6,783 nt of DNA from Betaproteobacteria bacterium. Its GTDB lineage: Bacteria > Pseudomonadota > Gammaproteobacteria > Burkholderiales > SG8-39. The DNA lies in assembly GCA_029865405.1 (NCBI GenBank), contig JAOUGZ010000145.1, forward strand, positions 1-6,783. The letters run 5' to 3'. Position numbers and translations under genes: made by a program. The stretch's first letter is position 1. Every line of letters begins with the position of its first letter. Positions 1 to 6,234 of the stretch are shown here, piece after piece. Under the pieces are notes generated by a model that was not told the origin of the DNA, ran no database searches, and saw only the letters and a program-made list of their open reading frames with translations.

Positions 1-374
1 AGCCCGAGGACTTCGTGAAGAAGACCGACGAGATGATCGCCAAGTACAAGGTGCGCGAGGACGGCGGCGATCTCAAGGTGCCGGTGGTGCGCCCGCCCGC
101 GGGCAGCGACGTTTACCTGGTCGCGCAACTGTGGCGCTGGTACCCGATCCTCGAGCTCGAGGCGGGCAAGTCCTACCGCATCCACCTCATGTCGCTGGAC
201 TGGCTGCACGGTTTCTCGCTGCAGCCGGAGAACATCAACATCCAGGTGCATCCCGGCTACGAGCACGTGCTGACGGTCACGCCGACCAACCCGGGAACCT
301 ATTCGATCATCTGCAACGAGTACTGCGGCATCAACCATCACCAGATGGTGAGCCGCCTGTACGTGGTGAAGTAA
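1..374 (+). CDS. Haem-copper oxidoreductase subunit II, CuA domain (5' end missing)
   Basis: This is the C-terminal part of a CuA-carrying subunit II, open at the left edge (reading frame from base 3); the membrane anchor and true start lie outside. The periplasmic cupredoxin fold receives electrons from cytochrome c or a cupredoxin and passes them to subunit I. The CuA ligands are all visible: the first histidine in LHGFSL (207-209), then the CNEYCGINHHQM segment (312-347), which fits C-x3-C-x3-H-x2-M. The wording around the first ligand and the PGTYSIICNEYCG segment resemble ba3-type (B-family) subunit II more than the aa3 type. Its stop is 10 bases before the subunit I start, so the two are co-transcribed. 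A GTG at 15 opens the frame in the window but is internal to the gene. Assignment to oxygen or NO reductase depends on subunit I; NorS of sNOR clusters is one possibility. Confidence 0.93.
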   Translation, partial: PEDFVKKTDEMIAKYKVREDGGDLKVPVVRPPAGSDVYLVAQLWRWYPILELEAGKSYRIHLMSLDWLHGFSLQPENINIQVHPGYEHVLTVTPTNPGTYSIICNEYCGINHHQMVSRLYVVK

Positions 375-384
375 GGGAGGCGTC

Positions 385-2109
385 ATGAGCGTGAACCGGA
401 TGTTCCGTACCTGCCCCTCCAGCGGGCTGGTGTTCCACGAGCCCGCCGAGAAGCTGATGCGCTGGAACGCGGTGGCCGCGGTCGTGTCGCTGCTCATCGG
501 GGGGCTGCTCGCCATCGGCGTGGTGCTGACGCGCTGGCAGGCGGTGCACCTGCTGCCGCCCGACAGGTTCTACCAGTTCCTCACCGCGCACGGCCTCAAC
601 ATGCTGGTGTTCTGGATCATCTTCTTCGAGATCGCGGTGCTGTACTTCGCCGCCTCGACGCTGCTCAAGTCGCGCCTGGCCACGCCGGGCATGGCGTGGC
701 TCGGGTTCTGGCTGATGGTGCTCGGCGCGCTGGTCAACAACTACTCGGTGTTCCGCGGCGATTCGAGCGTCATGTTCACCTCCTACGCGCCGATGGGCGC
801 GCACCCGACGTTCTACCTGGGGCTGATCCTGTTCGCGGTGGGGGCGCTGATCGCCTGTTTCGTCTTCTTCGGCACGCTGGTGGTGGCGAAGGCCGAGCGC
901 ACCTACCACGGCTCGGTGCCGCTGGTGACGTTCGGCGCCATTACCGCGGGCATCATCGCCGTATTCACCATCGCCGCGGGCGCCATCATCCTCATCCCGA
1001 CGTTCCTGTGGTCGGTGGGCCTGGTCGAGCACATCGACTCGCTCATGTACCGCACGGTGTGGTGGGCCTTCGGCCACTCGTCGCAGCAGATCAACGTCAG
1101 CGCGCACGTCGCCGTGTGGTACGCGGTGGCGGCGATCGTGTTCGGCGCAAAGCCGCTCTCGGAGAAAGTGAGCCGCACCGCGTTCCTGCTGTATATCCTG
1201 TTCCTGCAGCTGGCGAGCGCGCACCACCTGCTCGCCGACCCGGGCCTCACCTCGCACTGGAAGATCTTCAACACCAGCTACGCCATGTACCTGGCGGTGC
1301 TCGCCTCCATGGTGCACGGCCTCACGGTGCCGGGCTCGATCGAGGTGGCGCAGCGCGAGAAGGGCTTCAACCACGGCCTGTTCGAGTGGCTGAGGAAGGC
1401 GCCCTGGGGCAACCCGGCGTTCTCCTCGATGTTCATGTCGCTCATCGGCTTCGGCTTCCTCGGCGGCATCTCCGGCGTGATGATGGGCACCGAGCAGCTC
1501 AACCTCATCATCCACAACACCCTCTACGTGCCGGGGCACTTCCACGCCACGGTGGTGGTGGGCACGACGCTCGCCTTCATGGGCCTCACCTACTTCCTCA
1601 TCCCGGTGCTGTTCCGGCGCGAGCTGACCTTCCCGACGCTCGCCAAGTGGCAGCCGTACGTCTTCGGCCTGTCGATGATGGGGGTGTCGCTGTTCCTGAT
1701 GGGCGCGGGCACGCTCGGCGTGCCGCGGCGGCACTGGGACATCGGCTTCGCCGGCAACGCCTTCGCGCACGAGTTCCCGGGCGCGGCCTGGCTGATGATG
1801 GCGCTCGCCGGCATCACCGGCCTCGTCGCCATCGTCGGCGGCGGCATGTACCTGCTGATCACGGTCTGGTCGGTGTTCCTCGGCAAGAAGATCCAGACCC
1901 CGGGCTTCCAGCACGTGCGCGCCAAGGACGGCATCGCGCCGGCGCCCAAGCCGGTGGCGGCGGCGATCGCCGGGCACCATCCCAACGTCGGCGCGGGCGG
2001 CCTGGTGGCGCCGGGCACCTTCGCCCTGGCGATGGTGTTCCTCGCCGCGTTCGTCCTGTACTACTTCATAAACTGGAAGTACCTGTCCACGGTCTGGCCG
2101 CTGAAGTGA
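385..2109 (+). CDS. B-family (ba3-like) haem-copper oxidoreductase subunit I; probable NO reductase variant
   Basis: A 574-residue polytopic catalytic subunit. Start ATG 385 is preceded by GGGAGG at 375-380. Metal ligands seen: H69 (LTAHG, low-spin haem), H231 (FGHSS, CuB), H280-H281 (SAHHLLADPG, CuB), H385 and H387 (VPGHFH, high- and low-spin haem). The spacing H231 to H280 is 49 residues, as I recall for Thermus ba3 (H233 to H282), so the helix VI alignment is gapless there. It puts Q235 where ba3 has the cross-linked Tyr237. In helix VIII, E370-Q371 replace residues of the ba3 K-channel region. The final helix is about 543-562. Family knowledge: loss of this tyrosine marks NO reductases rather than O2 reductases in the superfamily. 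Inference: a B-related NOR (sNOR, eNOR or similar). An automated annotation would probably call it cytochrome c oxidase subunit I. The stop overlaps the next gene's GTG (GTGA). Confidence 0.93.
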   Translation: MSVNRMFRTCPSSGLVFHEPAEKLMRWNAVAAVVSLLIGGLLAIGVVLTRWQAVHLLPPDRFYQFLTAHGLNMLVFWIIFFEIAVLYFAASTLLKSRLATPGMAWLGFWLMVLGALVNNYSVFRGDSSVMFTSYAPMGAHPTFYLGLILFAVGALIACFVFFGTLVVAKAERTYHGSVPLVTFGAITAGIIAVFTIAAGAIILIPTFLWSVGLVEHIDSLMYRTVWWAFGHSSQQINVSAHVAVWYAVAAIVFGAKPLSEKVSRTAFLLYILFLQLASAHHLLADPGLTSHWKIFNTSYAMYLAVLASMVHGLTVPGSIEVAQREKGFNHGLFEWLRKAPWGNPAFSSMFMSLIGFGFLGGISGVMMGTEQLNLIIHNTLYVPGHFHATVVVGTTLAFMGLTYFLIPVLFRRELTFPTLAKWQPYVFGLSMMGVSLFLMGAGTLGVPRRHWDIGFAGNAFAHEFPGAAWLMMALAGITGLVAIVGGGMYLLITVWSVFLGKKIQTPGFQHVRAKDGIAPAPKPVAAAIAGHHPNVGAGGLVAPGTFALAMVFLAAFVLYYFINWKYLSTVWPLK

Positions 2110-2960
2110 AGCAGGTCCTCAACCTCTTCAAGCTCAGGATCGGCGTCGCCATCGCGTTCGCGGCGGCCGCCGGCCTGGCGGTGGAGTCGGGATCCGGGCC
2201 GGGGGCGGGCGGCGCCCTCATCCTGGTGCTCGCCGTGCTGGTCGCCTCGGCGGCCGCCGGCGCCTTCAACCAGTACGTCGAGCGCGACCTCGACGCGCGC
2301 ATGGGCCGCACGCGCAACCGCCCGTTCGTCACCGGCGCGCTCAGGCACGGCCCCGCGTGGCTATGGCTGATCGGCGCGATGCTCGCGCTGTCGGTCCTTG
2401 CCGCGGCGGTGGCGACGAATCCGCTCGCTGCCTTGTACGTGTTCCTAGGCGCCTTCACCTACGGCGTGGTGTACACGGTGTGGCTGAAACGGCGCACGTG
2501 GTGGAACATCGTCGTCGGCGGTCTCGCCGGCAGCTTCGCCGTGCTGGCGGGCGCCGCCGCCGTATCGCCGGCGCCGGGCCCCGAGGCGCTGGCGCTCGCC
2601 ATCGTCCTCTTCCTGTGGACGCCGCCGCATTTCTGGAGCCTCGCCATCGCCTACCGCGCGGATTACGCGGCAGCGCAAGTCCCGATGCTGCCGGTGGTGG
2701 TGGGCGACGCGCGCGCCGCGCGCGCCATCTTCGCCAGCGCGGCGCTGCTGGTCGCCGCCTCGCTCATGCCCGCGGCCTTCGGCCTGGGCTGGATCTATCT
2801 CGCCTGCGCCGCGGCCGGCGGGTTCGTGTTCCTCAGGCGCTGCCGGATTCTCGTGCAGCGGCCCGCGCGCGACACCGCGCGCGCTGCGTTCCTCGCCTCG
2901 CTCGTGCAGCTCGGCGCCGTGCTGGCGGGAGCGATGCTCGATGTCGCGCTGCTGGCTTAG
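2106..2960 (+). CDS. cyoE: Protohaem IX farnesyltransferase (haem O synthase)
   Basis: A 284-residue membrane prenyltransferase of the UbiA superfamily, also called CtaB. It adds a farnesyl group to haem B to give haem O, the cofactor (or haem A precursor) of many haem-copper enzymes. The first Asp-rich motif is N55-QYVERDLDARM with R-x-x-RP at 70-73, binding the Mg-diphosphate of farnesyl-PP. The second conserved block is YTVWLKRRTWWN (123-134) followed by an IVVGGLAGS stretch, and WTPPHFW (171-177) is diagnostic. About 7-9 hydrophobic helices are visible. The GTG at 2106 overlaps the subunit I stop, implying translational coupling; the mature length and the conserved N-terminal LFKLRIG segment support this start. 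No haem A synthase (ctaA) is present in the window. Its place in the operon suggests that the neighbouring reductase carries haem O or A, but this is inference. Confidence 0.95.
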   Translation: MKQVLNLFKLRIGVAIAFAAAAGLAVESGSGPGAGGALILVLAVLVASAAAGAFNQYVERDLDARMGRTRNRPFVTGALRHGPAWLWLIGAMLALSVLAAAVATNPLAALYVFLGAFTYGVVYTVWLKRRTWWNIVVGGLAGSFAVLAGAAAVSPAPGPEALALAIVLFLWTPPHFWSLAIAYRADYAAAQVPMLPVVVGDARAARAIFASAALLVAASLMPAAFGLGWIYLACAAAGGFVFLRRCRILVQRPARDTARAAFLASLVQLGAVLAGAMLDVALLA

Positions 2961-3723
2961 CTGCGCGCTGCTGCTCGCCGCCTTCGCCGCGCACGCGTTC
3001 GACGAAAAACTCGCGCTGCGCGAGAGCCAGGCCGCCCTCGGCCGCACGATCGGCGACTACGCGCTGCGCGACACCGCGGGCCGCTCGGTGCGCCTCGCGG
3101 AGCTGCGCGGCAAGCCGCTGGTGGTGCACTTCATCTACACCGGCTGCTTCCAGGTGTGCCCGGCGAGCACGCAGTTCCTGGCGAAGGCGGTGGCCCAGGC
3201 CGAGCGCACGCTCGGGCCGGGCACGTTCCGCGTCGCCACCATCGGCTTCAACCTGCCGTTCGACACGCCCGCCGCGATGAAGGAATTCGCGCAGAAGCAC
3301 GCGGTCGCCTCGCCGCATTGGCTGTTCCTGTCGCCGGACGCCGCAACGCTGCCGCAGCTCATCGCCGACTTCGGCTTTCGCTACGAATCGACCGCCGCGG
3401 GGTTCGACCACCTGCTGCAGGCGAGCATCGTCGACCGTGACGGCAGGATCTACCGTCAGGTGTACGGCGACCAATTCGACGTGCCGCTGTTCGTCGGGCC
3501 GCTGCTGGAGCTCGCGCAGAACAAGCCCGTGCCGCAGGGCAACCTGCAGGCCTTTTTCGAGCAGGTGAAGCTGCTGTGCACCGTGTACGACCCCGTGGCG
3601 GGGCGCTACCGGGTGAACTACGTGATCGTCGCCGAGCTGCTCGTCGGCGCGAGCATCATCCTCGGCATCCTCACGTTCCTCGTCGTCGAGTGGCGGCGCC
3701 GCCGGCGACCGTCCAATATTTAA
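2941..3723 (+). CDS. SCO1/SenC-family copper chaperone with C-terminal membrane anchor
   Basis: A 260-residue thioredoxin-fold protein that loads or reduces the CuA site of haem-copper enzymes on the periplasmic side. Residues 1-19 look like a cleavable signal peptide ending in AHA. The copper site is C69-FQV-C73-P, and the third ligand is probably H157 (GFDHLLQASIVD). A long hydrophobic segment at about 228-249 followed by WRRRRR gives a C-terminal anchor with a cytoplasmic basic tail, seen in the longer SCO subfamily. The start overlaps the end of cyoE by 20 bases, and a purine-rich GCGGGAG stretch lies upstream. A SenC gene beside subunits I and II is typical of CuA enzymes and, as I recall, of the norS-norY-senC clusters of ammonia oxidisers. 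The final codons (CCAATATTTAA) are unusually AT-rich for this window and merge into a candidate regulatory site. Confidence 0.93.
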   Translation: MSRCWLSCALLLAAFAAHAFDEKLALRESQAALGRTIGDYALRDTAGRSVRLAELRGKPLVVHFIYTGCFQVCPASTQFLAKAVAQAERTLGPGTFRVATIGFNLPFDTPAAMKEFAQKHAVASPHWLFLSPDAATLPQLIADFGFRYESTAAGFDHLLQASIVDRDGRIYRQVYGDQFDVPLFVGPLLELAQNKPVPQGNLQAFFEQVKLLCTVYDPVAGRYRVNYVIVAELLVGASIILGILTFLVVEWRRRRRPSNI

Positions 3724-3767: not shown

Positions 3768-5678
3768 GTGATCCACCGTATTCACCTGATCGGCCAGTGG
3801 TTTTTCCTCAGGGTGGAGGCGCTGTTCAACCTCGCGTTCGGCGACCGGCTGAACCCGCTCTACTACCTCGGCCCGATCGCCTACTACCTCATGTGGCTGG
3901 TGGTGGCGAGCGGGCTCTACCTGTACGCGCTGTTCGAAACCAGCGTCGGCGGCGCGTATGACTCGGTCGAGGCGCTGACGCACGGCCAGCGCTACATCGG
4001 CGGCGTGCTGCGCTCGGTCCACCGCTACGCTTCCGACGGCGTGGTGCTGGTGATGGTCCTGCATCTTGCGCGCCATTGGTGCTTCGACCGCTACCGCGGT
4101 TTTCGCTGGTTCTCGTGGGTGAGCGGCGTGGCGCTGCTGTGGCTGGTGTACGCCTCCGGCATCAACGGCTACATGCTGCCCTGGGACCGCCTGGCGCAGT
4201 TCGTGGTGATCGCCACCGCCGAGTGGCTCGACTGGCTGCCGGTGTTCCAGGGCGCGCTGGTGCGCAATTTCATCTTCCCCGAGAACGTGAACGATCGCCT
4301 GTTTTCGCTCCTGTCCTTCATCCACATCGGCGTGCCGCTGCTCGTGCTCGCCGTCCTGTGGGTGCACACGCAGCGCGTGCCGCAGGCGCGCACCGCGCCG
4401 CCGCTGCCGGTGGCCCTGACGCTCACCGCGGCGCTCACCGTGCTCTCGCTCGTCAAGCCCGCCGTGAGCCAGCCGCGCGCCGATCTCGCCGCCGCGGTCG
4501 GCAGCGTCGACTTCGACTGGTTCTACCTGCCCGTGTACGCCCTGCTCTACCGCACCTCGCCGGGCGAAGTCTGGTTGCTGCTGGGCGGGCTCACGGCGCT
4601 GTTTCTCGTGCTGCCCTGGCTGCCGCCGCGGAAGAAAGCCGCCGAGCACTACATGCTGCTGCGCCCGGACAACCGCATCGTCGCCGTGCGCGCGGGCGAC
4701 ACGATCCTGGATGCCGGGCTGCGCGCGGGCGTGGCGCTGCCGTTCGAGTGCCGCAACGGCGGCTGCGGCCAGTGCAAGGCGACGCTCGCCTACGGCGAGG
4801 TCGACTTCGGCGCCTACCAGCCGGAGGCGCTGACGCCGGCGGAGCGCGCGGCCGGCAAGCTCCTCACCTGCTGCGCCACGCCGCGCGGCGACATCGAGAT
4901 CGAGTACCAGCCGGCGCAGGCGCCCGGGGGCATCCGCCCGCGCGAATGGCGCGCCACGGTCGACAGCCTCGAGCGGCTCGCCCCCGACGTGATGCGCGTG
5001 ATCCTCGCCATCGACGGCAGCGAGCGCATCGCCTTCTACGCCGGGCAGTACATCAACGTGCTGCTCGAGGACGGCGCGCGGCGCAGCTTCTCGTTCGCCA
5101 CCGCGCCGCGGGACAGCGCGCGCATCGAGCTGCACATCCGGCGCATTCCGGGCGGGCGCTACACGGGCCACGTCTTCGAGCAGATGCGCGCCGGCGACAA
5201 GGTGCGCTTCGAGGGCCCGCTCGGCGCCTTCTTCCTGCGCGAGGACACCGACAAGCCGATCATCTTCGTCGCCGGCTCGACCGGCTTCGCGCCGGTGAAG
5301 AGCATGCTGGAGTACGCCTTCGCCAAGGGCCTGCGCCGGCGCATGCTGCTGTACTGGGGCACGCGCCACCTCGCCGACATGTATCTCGCCGCACTGCCGG
5401 AGCAGTGGGCGCGCGAGCATGAGAATTTCACCTTCGTGCCGGTGCTCTCCGAGCCGGCGCCGGAAGACCATTGGCAGGGGCGCACCGGCCTCGTGCACGA
5501 AGCCATCCTCGCAGACTTTCCCAGCCTCGCCGGCCACCAGGTGTACGCCTGCGGCTCGAGCGCGATGGTGGAGGCCGCGCACCCGGCATTCCGCGCGCGC
5601 GGCCTCGCCCAGGACGACTGCTTCGCCGACGCCTTCCGCCCGGCGCCGCAGCTGGCGCGCCTTGGAGGCCACGCATGA
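3768..5678 (+). CDS. Cytochrome b - [2Fe-2S] ferredoxin - FAD/NAD(P) reductase fusion
   Basis: A 636-residue membrane flavoprotein in three parts. Residues 1-290: diheme cytochrome b, helices at about 35-57, 83-101, 117-137 and 178-200, with haem ligands H85/H99 and H186/H200, each pair spaced H-x13-H as in bc1 cytochrome b. Two further helices (about 212-230, 268-286) flank DWFYLPVY (250-257), which looks like a shortened, altered PEWY (Qo) loop. Residues 294-382: plant-type ferredoxin, C328-x4-C333-x2-C336 and C368. Residues 390-623: ferredoxin-reductase module with FAD motif RSFS (439-442), NAD(P) motif GSTGFAPVKS (503-512), ACGSS (594-598) and terminal FADAF. Six helices would put the reductase in the cytoplasm. 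Likely role: electron exchange between quinones and NAD(P)H; the direction is unknown. A similar cytochrome b/flavin fusion was, as I recall, noted in Candidatus Accumulibacter. The stop overlaps the next start (ATGA). Confidence 0.92.
   Translation: MIHRIHLIGQWFFLRVEALFNLAFGDRLNPLYYLGPIAYYLMWLVVASGLYLYALFETSVGGAYDSVEALTHGQRYIGGVLRSVHRYASDGVVLVMVLHLARHWCFDRYRGFRWFSWVSGVALLWLVYASGINGYMLPWDRLAQFVVIATAEWLDWLPVFQGALVRNFIFPENVNDRLFSLLSFIHIGVPLLVLAVLWVHTQRVPQARTAPPLPVALTLTAALTVLSLVKPAVSQPRADLAAAVGSVDFDWFYLPVYALLYRTSPGEVWLLLGGLTALFLVLPWLPPRKKAAEHYMLLRPDNRIVAVRAGDTILDAGLRAGVALPFECRNGGCGQCKATLAYGEVDFGAYQPEALTPAERAAGKLLTCCATPRGDIEIEYQPAQAPGGIRPREWRATVDSLERLAPDVMRVILAIDGSERIAFYAGQYINVLLEDGARRSFSFATAPRDSARIELHIRRIPGGRYTGHVFEQMRAGDKVRFEGPLGAFFLREDTDKPIIFVAGSTGFAPVKSMLEYAFAKGLRRRMLLYWGTRHLADMYLAALPEQWAREHENFTFVPVLSEPAPEDHWQGRTGLVHEAILADFPSLAGHQVYACGSSAMVEAAHPAFRARGLAQDDCFADAFRPAPQLARLGGHA
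5664..5668 (+). promoter_or_regulatory. Ribosome binding site GGAGG for the ATG at 5675
   Basis: GGAGG lies 6 bases before ATG 5675, inside the last codons of the cytochrome b fusion. It selects this start over upstream frame extensions and fits coupled translation through the ATGA overlap. Confidence 0.7.
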
Positions 5679-6178
5679 AGCAGGCACTGCGCATCGCCGC
5701 GCAGCTCGCGCTCTATGTGCCTCTGATGGTGCTGATCGGCTACTTCTCCACCGAACCGCGCTTCTCCACGCTCGGGCCGGACGAGGCGCTGGTGCGCCTG
5801 TCGTTCATCCACGCCGCCGAGAGGAAGGAACCGTGCCGGCCACGCAGCGCCGCGGAGCTCGCCAAGCTCGCGCCCAACATGCGCGCGGCGCTCGACTGCC
5901 CGCGCGAGCGCGCGGTGCTGCTGATCGAGCTGGAGGTCGACGGCGCGATCGCGCTGCGCCGCGAGGTGCCGCCGTCGGGCGTGCAGCGCGACGGCAACGC
6001 CACGGTGTACCACCGCCTGCCGCTGCCCGCGGGCCGGCACCGCATCGTCGCGCGCCTGCGCGACCGCGCGGGCGAGGACTTCAACTACGTGGGCGAGACG
6101 ACGCTCGAGCTCGCGCCCGGCGCGGCGCTGCTCATCGATTTCTCCAAGGCCAAGGGTGGCTTCGTCTTCCGCACTTGA
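5675..6178 (+). CDS. Membrane-anchored protein of unknown function
   Basis: A 167-residue protein that I do not recognise. Residues about 5-23 form a single hydrophobic segment after MKQALR, either an uncleaved anchor or a signal sequence, so the rest probably faces the periplasm. The remainder has two cysteines (C54, C75) that could form a disulphide, and alternating beta-like stretches. LPAGRHRIVARLRD (116-129) and ELAPGAALLIDF (145-156) recall beta-sandwich or PEGA-like surface domains. It has no haem, Fe-S or copper motif. A good GGAGG site and the ATGA overlap with the fusion gene support this start. Lying between two cytochrome b genes, it may be an accessory or assembly subunit of their complex. 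The last two bases of its stop codon belong to the inverted repeat that follows, so the original C-terminus may have been changed. Confidence 0.85.
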   Translation: MKQALRIAAQLALYVPLMVLIGYFSTEPRFSTLGPDEALVRLSFIHAAERKEPCRPRSAAELAKLAPNMRAALDCPRERAVLLIELEVDGAIALRREVPPSGVQRDGNATVYHRLPLPAGRHRIVARLRDRAGEDFNYVGETTLELAPGAALLIDFSKAKGGFVFRT

Positions 6179-6234
6179 AAATAGGGACAGACCTCATTTT
6201 TGCTTCATGAAAAATGAGGTCTGTCCCTATTTTC
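6177..6234. repeat. Perfect 25-bp-arm inverted repeat (REP/MITE-like palindrome)
   Basis: The arms 6177-6201 and 6210-6234 are exact reverse complements, separated by an 8-base loop (GCTTCATG). The core of the arm reads ATAGGGACAGACCTCATTTT. The element is about 35-40% GC in a region near 70%, which marks it as foreign. No target-site duplication is visible; only a single T flanks each side. I recall related palindromes with a GGGACAGACC core scattered in proteobacterial genomes and linked to RAYT/IS200-like transposases, but cannot verify this here. In RNA it would form a very stable hairpin with a U-rich tail (TATTTTC), so a weak terminator or attenuator role is possible. Confidence 0.9.

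What the first reader, a model, noticed from the sequence alone, without database searches (positions are those of the whole stretch)
1060..1095. Active-site tyrosine replaced by glutamine in the haem-copper subunit I
Seen: the CuB helix reads FGHSSQQIN, and the distance from H231 to the HH pair (49 residues) equals that recalled for Thermus ba3, so Q235 aligns with Tyr237 without gaps. Known: the His-Tyr cross-link is needed for O2 reduction, and NO reductases lack it. Inference: this is an NO reductase of the B-related type (sNOR, eNOR or a neighbouring family) that would usually be annotated as cytochrome c oxidase.
Basis: partly seen in the sequence, partly recalled or inferred. Interest (0 to 1): 0.75.

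Follow-up and report, generated by a model that had tools for sequence, protein, structure and literature searches.

The report
eNOR-type nitric oxide reductase operon
A gene that databases call a cytochrome oxidase lacks the tyrosine typical of oxygen-reducing enzymes and belongs to a large, already described family (eNOR) that most likely turns nitric oxide into the greenhouse gas nitrous oxide.

Summary
Residue 235 of the haem-copper subunit I (window 385-2109) is Gln where Thermus ba3 has its cross-linked Tyr, with the same spacing to the HH pair. The C-family tyrosine position is Leu274. Gln235 is invariant in 311 of 311 relatives aligned. With the active-site columns removed, the Gln proteins form one clade beside Tyr-bearing B-type oxidases (100/100 support; placing the window among those oxidases is rejected, AU p 0.00012). 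Genome context favours NO as substrate. In 200 genomes of one order, 18 of 19 with this gene carry cytochrome cd1 nitrite reductase, against 34 of 181 without it; 11 of those 18 lack cNOR and qNOR, against 3 of 34 other nirS genomes (kinship not corrected). The nirS link recurs in a second order (10 of 12 against 18 of 187). A new member of a known kind; activity untested. The operon's cytochrome b modules and a CuB-less paralogue are less expected.

The parts
3..374 (+). Cupredoxin (CuA) subunit II, 5' end cut by the window; CuA motif C-NEY-C-GIN-H-HQ-M present
   Evidence: Pfam COX2 24.9 bits; alignment with Defluviimonas, Thermus, Thermomicrobium and Haloarcula subunit II; a subunit II homologue is found in 99 of 99 distinct loci, upstream of subunit I in the listing
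385..2109 (+). Haem-copper subunit I of eNOR type (574 aa)
   Evidence: Pfam COX1 221.7 bits; best solved relatives Thermus ba3, up to 184.1 bits; AlphaFold2 model pLDDT 84.9, pTM 0.87, Foldseek ranks 1-19 all Thermus ba3; trees
1060..1095 (+). CuB helix segment, residues 226-237, with His231, Gln234, Gln235 and Asn237
   Evidence: His231, Gln234, Gln235 and Asn237 each 311 of 311
1087..1089 (+). Codon CAG of Gln235, the position of the cross-linked Tyr in A- and B-type oxygen reductases
2106..2960 (+). Haem O synthase (CtaB/CyoE)
   Evidence: TIGR01473 253.5 bits over cut-off 210.3; Pfam UbiA
2941..3723 (+). SCO1/SenC copper-insertion protein
   Evidence: Pfam SCO1-SenC 45 bits
3768..5678 (+). 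Fusion: di-haem cytochrome b (H-x13-H twice), 2Fe-2S ferredoxin, FAD and NAD(P) domains
   Evidence: Pfam Cytochrome_B, Fer2, FAD_binding_6, NAD_binding_1; haem ligands
5675..6178 (+). Small protein of 167 aa without Pfam family, conserved in the operon
   Evidence: homologues in 74 of 99 loci; no Pfam hit
6177..6234 (.). Perfect palindrome, 25-bp arms, 8-bp loop
6207..6782 (+). Second cytochrome b, cut by the window end; ATG at 6207-6209 lies in the palindrome loop and the N-terminal segment of relatives is missing
   Evidence: Pfam Cytochrome_B 65 bits; N-termini of five relatives

Best explanation
This is the operon of an eNOR, a nitric oxide reductase related to B-type oxygen reductases. 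Electrons enter through the CuA of subunit II, pass the low-spin haem (H69, H387) and reach the site formed by the high-spin haem (H385) and CuB (H231, H280, H281), where 2 NO become N2O and water. Gln235 replaces the redox-active Tyr, which NO reduction (two electrons, no O-O bond to split) does not need. Conserved Ser308, His311 and Tyr246 on the K-channel path of ba3 suggest protons still come from the cytoplasm. CtaB and SCO serve cofactor assembly. Shown here: sequence, homology, phylogeny and co-occurrence with nirS. Inferred: substrate, electron and proton routes, and physiology (respiratory NO removal in nirS denitrifiers).
For: Gln at the Tyr position, invariant in 311 of 311. C-family Tyr position is Leu, or Ile in relatives. 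Gln clade monophyletic beside Tyr-bearing B oxidases, window inside them rejected, p 0.00012. Published table: Gln = eNOR; eNOR is listed as biochemically characterised (passage of PMC11388526). In the order of G001, 18 of 19 carrier genomes have NirS against 34 of 181 others (p 3.6e-11). Among nirS genomes, cNOR and qNOR are absent in 11 of 18 carriers against 3 of 34 non-carriers (p 1.1e-4). nirS is on the same contig in 11 of 18 (some of these contigs are whole chromosomes) and within 1.7-15.2 kb in six. Second order: 10 of 12 against 18 of 187, p 3.4e-8. T. thermophilus plasmid homologues lie next to an Rrf2 regulator and a DUF542 protein (L002, L003), with an annotated nitrite reductase nearby in L003.
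Against: No assay. eNOR reference sequences named in print, such as Rhodothermus, were not obtained. Over all 200 genomes the gene is not associated with cNOR/qNOR presence (p 0.80). Seven of 18 nirS carriers also have cNOR or qNOR. One carrier of 19 lacks nirS; in the second order one carrier has only nirK and one neither, and only 8 of 12 pass the stricter NirS cut. The window's own genome is not held, so nirS could not be looked for there. Tyr270 is near-invariant (309 of 311), four residues from the C-family Tyr position, and its distance to CuB is unknown.
Confidence: 0.87

Rival explanations
1. A high-affinity oxygen reductase that works without the cross-linked Tyr, as was argued for the B-related sNOR of Nitrosomonas europaea.
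For: Same fold as ba3 and all six His ligands kept. O2-limited induction of sNOR was read as possible oxidase function (PMC6967387 passages). cNOR without Tyr still reduces O2 (PMC8079940 passage). Co-occurrence with nirS does not by itself exclude microaerobic O2 use.
Against: Tyr replaced in each of 311 aligned relatives with none at the C-family position; frequent absence of cNOR and qNOR in nirS carriers; the family is listed as characterised NO reductase.
Confidence: 0.09
2. An NO reductase used for detoxification under nitrosative stress rather than for respiration (a variant of the best explanation, not exclusive with it).
For: Thermus homologues sit beside Rrf2 and DUF542 genes; a hemerythrin-like gene is present in 21 of 99 loci.
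Against: nirS co-occurrence in two orders and a CuA subunit that fits wiring to the respiratory chain.
Confidence: 0.2
3. An sNOR, bNOR or gNOR.
For: SCO (senC) in the operon, as beside norSY.
Against: These have Asn, Asn and Asp at the position; the window has Gln.
Confidence: 0.02

Closest known systems
eNOR (Hemp and Gennis 2008 and Murali et al. 2024, neither held; described in PMC8756737, passages seen)
   Same: Gln at the Tyr position, cupredoxin subunit II next to subunit I, B-type relation, K-channel residues; eNOR already reported in Betaproteobacteria and in Gallionellaceae genomes with nir genes (PMC10734462 passages)
   Different: Nothing tested in subunit I sets it apart. The cytochrome b-2Fe-2S-flavin fusion and the CuB-less paralogue are not mentioned in the passages I saw
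sNOR / NorSY of Nitrosomonas
   Same: B-related HCO with a second subunit and a senC (SCO) gene (PMC6967387 passages)
   Different: Asn instead of Gln at the active site (table seen)
bNOR (CuANOR, Bacillus azotoformans)
   Same: Tyr lost, CuA subunit, B-related; SCO and in B. bataviensis ctaB nearby (PMC3475470 passages)
   Different: Asn at the position
ba3 oxygen reductase of Thermus (1EHK, 3S8F)
   Same: Best solved relative by sequence and Foldseek
   Different: Tyr at the position; groups with the Tyr rows

Membership tests
eNOR | Gln at the position of the cross-linked Tyr | tested here: met
   Q235; criterion from PMC8756737
eNOR | One clade with Gln proteins of groups where eNOR was published (Chloroflexi, Thermus, Proteobacteria) | tested here: met
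   48 Gln rows one clade, SH-aLRT 100, including rows named Caldilinea, Anaerolineae and Thermus; 36 rows 100/100. The published accessions themselves were not in hand
eNOR | Clade shared with the purified eNOR (Rhodothermus marinus, recalled) | not tested
   The Rhodothermus sequence was not reached; the R. marinus plasmid record in hand has no COX1 match
eNOR | Cupredoxin subunit II adjacent | tested here: met
   window 3-374; 99 of 99 loci
eNOR | One proton channel | tested here: inconclusive
   Y246, S308 and H311 invariant at ba3 K-channel positions (channel residues recalled); function not testable
eNOR | NO reductase activity | not testable with these tools
   -
sNOR or bNOR | Asn at the position | tested here: not met
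   Gln235
gNOR | Asp at the position | tested here: not met
   Gln235
cNOR or qNOR | Glu at the position | tested here: not met
   Gln235; the cNOR and qNOR used as queries have Glu at His+4
B-type oxygen reductase | Tyr at the position and place inside the clade | tested here: not met
   Gln235; AU p 0.00012 against the window with 10 Tyr-bearing B rows
C-type oxygen reductase | Tyr on helix VII, six residues before HH | tested here: not met
   Leu274; Tyr of L092 and L093 aligns there

The most novel reading that the evidence does not exclude
The operon encodes a self-wired NO reductase system: a cytochrome b carrying 2Fe-2S and NAD(P)H-flavin domains (and a second one that in relatives carries 4Fe-4S and FlpD domains) passes cytoplasmic electrons through the membrane, and a CuB-less haem-copper paralogue that keeps one distal His and a Gln acts as partner or NO relay, so that eNOR can be fed from NAD(P)H or ferredoxin as well as from the cytochrome c pool.
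Probability: 0.2. Interest if true: 0.65.

Novelty: new member of a known kind. Interest (0 to 1): 0.4.

Why it matters
Proteins of this family carry cytochrome c oxidase names in databases, so nirS denitrifiers that lack cNOR and qNOR look as if they stop at NO. In the 200-genome sample, 11 of the 14 nirS genomes without cNOR or qNOR carry this gene, so counting it changes which organisms are predicted to make N2O. The conserved operon also makes the electron source of eNOR directly testable.

Tried and rejected
sNOR was rejected by the active-site residue. A substitute tyrosine at the C-family position was rejected (Leu274). Sequencing error was rejected (two base changes needed, invariant in relatives). 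The viral-contig scan gave 12 pattern matches, none encoding a relative. Rfam at gathering cut-offs gave nothing in the window. The plasmid search was run twice with different listings, which wasted one call. nirK is not associated with the gene (0 of 19 carriers; 2 of 12). Near the gene itself, a NirS query (E up to 1e-10, which also admits NirF or NirN) hit 8 of 100 fetched loci, one of them the query's own, so tight linkage is not general; the fetched flanks are short.

Choice of rows: the AlphaFold alignment used 58 rows (window, 9 of 120 proteins, 48 of 74 usable loci). The tree used 67 rows picked from those in hand; from the other haem-copper sequences I left out L094, L095, L097, L106, L107, L154 and L155, and 18 more rows, among them long branches L102 and L091-L093, from the careful tree. 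Six of 80 loci (L009, L011, L033, L038, L075, L077) were left out of alignments because subunit I ends at a stop and its last helix follows as a separate stretch. L153 was dropped as the same contig as L076; other overlaps between the two genome collections were not checked. Distances in the model could not be measured. Two paper searches on the operon and on CuB-less proteins listed, by title and start of abstract, 10 of 12 and 10 of 16 papers, none of which plainly concerns them; this covers only the held library, and the main eNOR paper was not readable.

Full report
What is there. The window carries one tightly packed operon on the + strand: CuA subunit II (3-374, 5' cut), haem-copper subunit I (385-2109), haem O synthase (2106-2960), SCO1 (2941-3723), a cytochrome b-2Fe-2S-FAD/NAD fusion (3768-5678), a 167-aa protein without Pfam family (5675-6178), a palindrome (6177-6234) and the start of a second cytochrome b.

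The observation. Residue 235 of subunit I is Gln where ba3 has the cross-linked Tyr. The alignment is gapless from there to the HH pair, and H231 to H280 is 49 residues. Gln234, Gln235 and Asn237 are invariant in 311 of 311 rows. Seventy-four of those rows came from a scan with patterns one of which contains QQ; the 120 proteins listed did not, and are also 120 of 120 for both Gln. The C-family Tyr (L092, L093) aligns with Leu274, so no replacement tyrosine is at that place. Tyr270 (309 of 311) lies four residues away; without coordinates its distance to CuB is open.

Function from genomes. In 200 genomes drawn from the order of G001 (the genome of locus L076, titled Sulfuritalea), 19 carry the gene at 65-85% identity, two of them as pieces at contig ends. 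Eighteen of the 19 have a cytochrome d1 match at E below 1e-140 (NirS), against 34 of 181 others. None of the 19 has a NirK over the cut-off (21 of 200 do). Of nirS genomes, cNOR or qNOR is present in 7 of 18 carriers and 31 of 34 non-carriers (p 1.1e-4). Over all 200 genomes the gene and cNOR/qNOR are not associated (p 0.80). In 199 genomes of the order of G004 (genome of L062, titled Bradyrhizobium), 12 carry the gene. Ten of these 12 have cytochrome d1 matches at E up to 1e-90, against 18 of 187 others (p 3.4e-8). With the stricter cut it is 8 of 12 against 13 of 187 (p 1.5e-6). Kinship is not corrected for, and the 1e-140 cut was set after seeing the matches. Together these make NO the likely substrate, since the gene goes with an NO source and often stands where the usual NO reductases are missing.

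Neighbourhood. In 99 distinct loci, homologues were found of subunit II in 99, cytochrome b in 81, the 4Fe-4S/FlpD part in 78, the small protein in 74, SCO in 64, CtaB in 58, the CuB-less paralogue in 24, the ferredoxin-FNR part in 21 and hemerythrin in 21. Some of the query proteins come from these very loci (L001, L002, L054), and several loci are short, so the absences mean little. The paralogue (25 different sequences) keeps the haem ligands H84, H362 and H364 plus H231 and Q234, and has lost the HH pair. What it and the cytochrome b proteins do is inferred only.

Verdict. Observation confirmed, interpretation supported and narrowed to eNOR; a new member of a known kind.

Noticed in passing
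L054:13563-14981; also L013:9771-11255, L017, L033, L034, L057, L061, L068, L075, L078, L138-L152: A haem-copper paralogue that keeps the haem ligands, one distal His and an invariant Gln but has lost the HH pair of CuB; homologue found in 24 of 99 eNOR loci. Three members tested had no NCBIfam match, only Pfam COX1.
   Followed up: partly
window 3768-5678; L054:11442-13064: Di-haem cytochrome b fused to 2Fe-2S and FAD/NAD domains, and a sister fused to 4Fe-4S domains and an FlpD (hydrogenase delta) domain; relatives of the cytochrome b part in eNOR loci of several phyla.
   Followed up: partly
window 6177-6234: A perfect 25-bp palindrome stands where relatives have the 5' end of the second cytochrome b gene; the in-frame ATG (6207-6209) lies in its loop. 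No copy of an 11-base core was found in the loci held then.
   Followed up: partly
L002, L003, P0121-P0136, P0138, P0150, P0152, P0153, P0160: Thermus eNORs and some relatives have Lys instead of His at the low-spin haem ligand position (window H387): 21 of 311 rows, and L002 and L003.
   Followed up: no
L009, L011, L033, L038, L075, L077: The last helix of subunit I follows after a stop as a separate stretch in at least four of these loci (clear in L009, L011, L038, L075), like the subunit IIa of ba3 (recalled); it is fused in the window.
   Followed up: no
L154 and L155: Another odd COX1-family protein with YH for HH and PGYFH for PGHFH, so metal ligands are degenerate.
   Followed up: no
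L001, L019, L024 and 18 more loci: A hemerythrin-like gene follows the small protein in loci whose titles are of Alpha-, Gammaproteobacteria or unplaced Proteobacteria; none of these 21 loci is among the 24 with the CuB-less paralogue.
   Followed up: no
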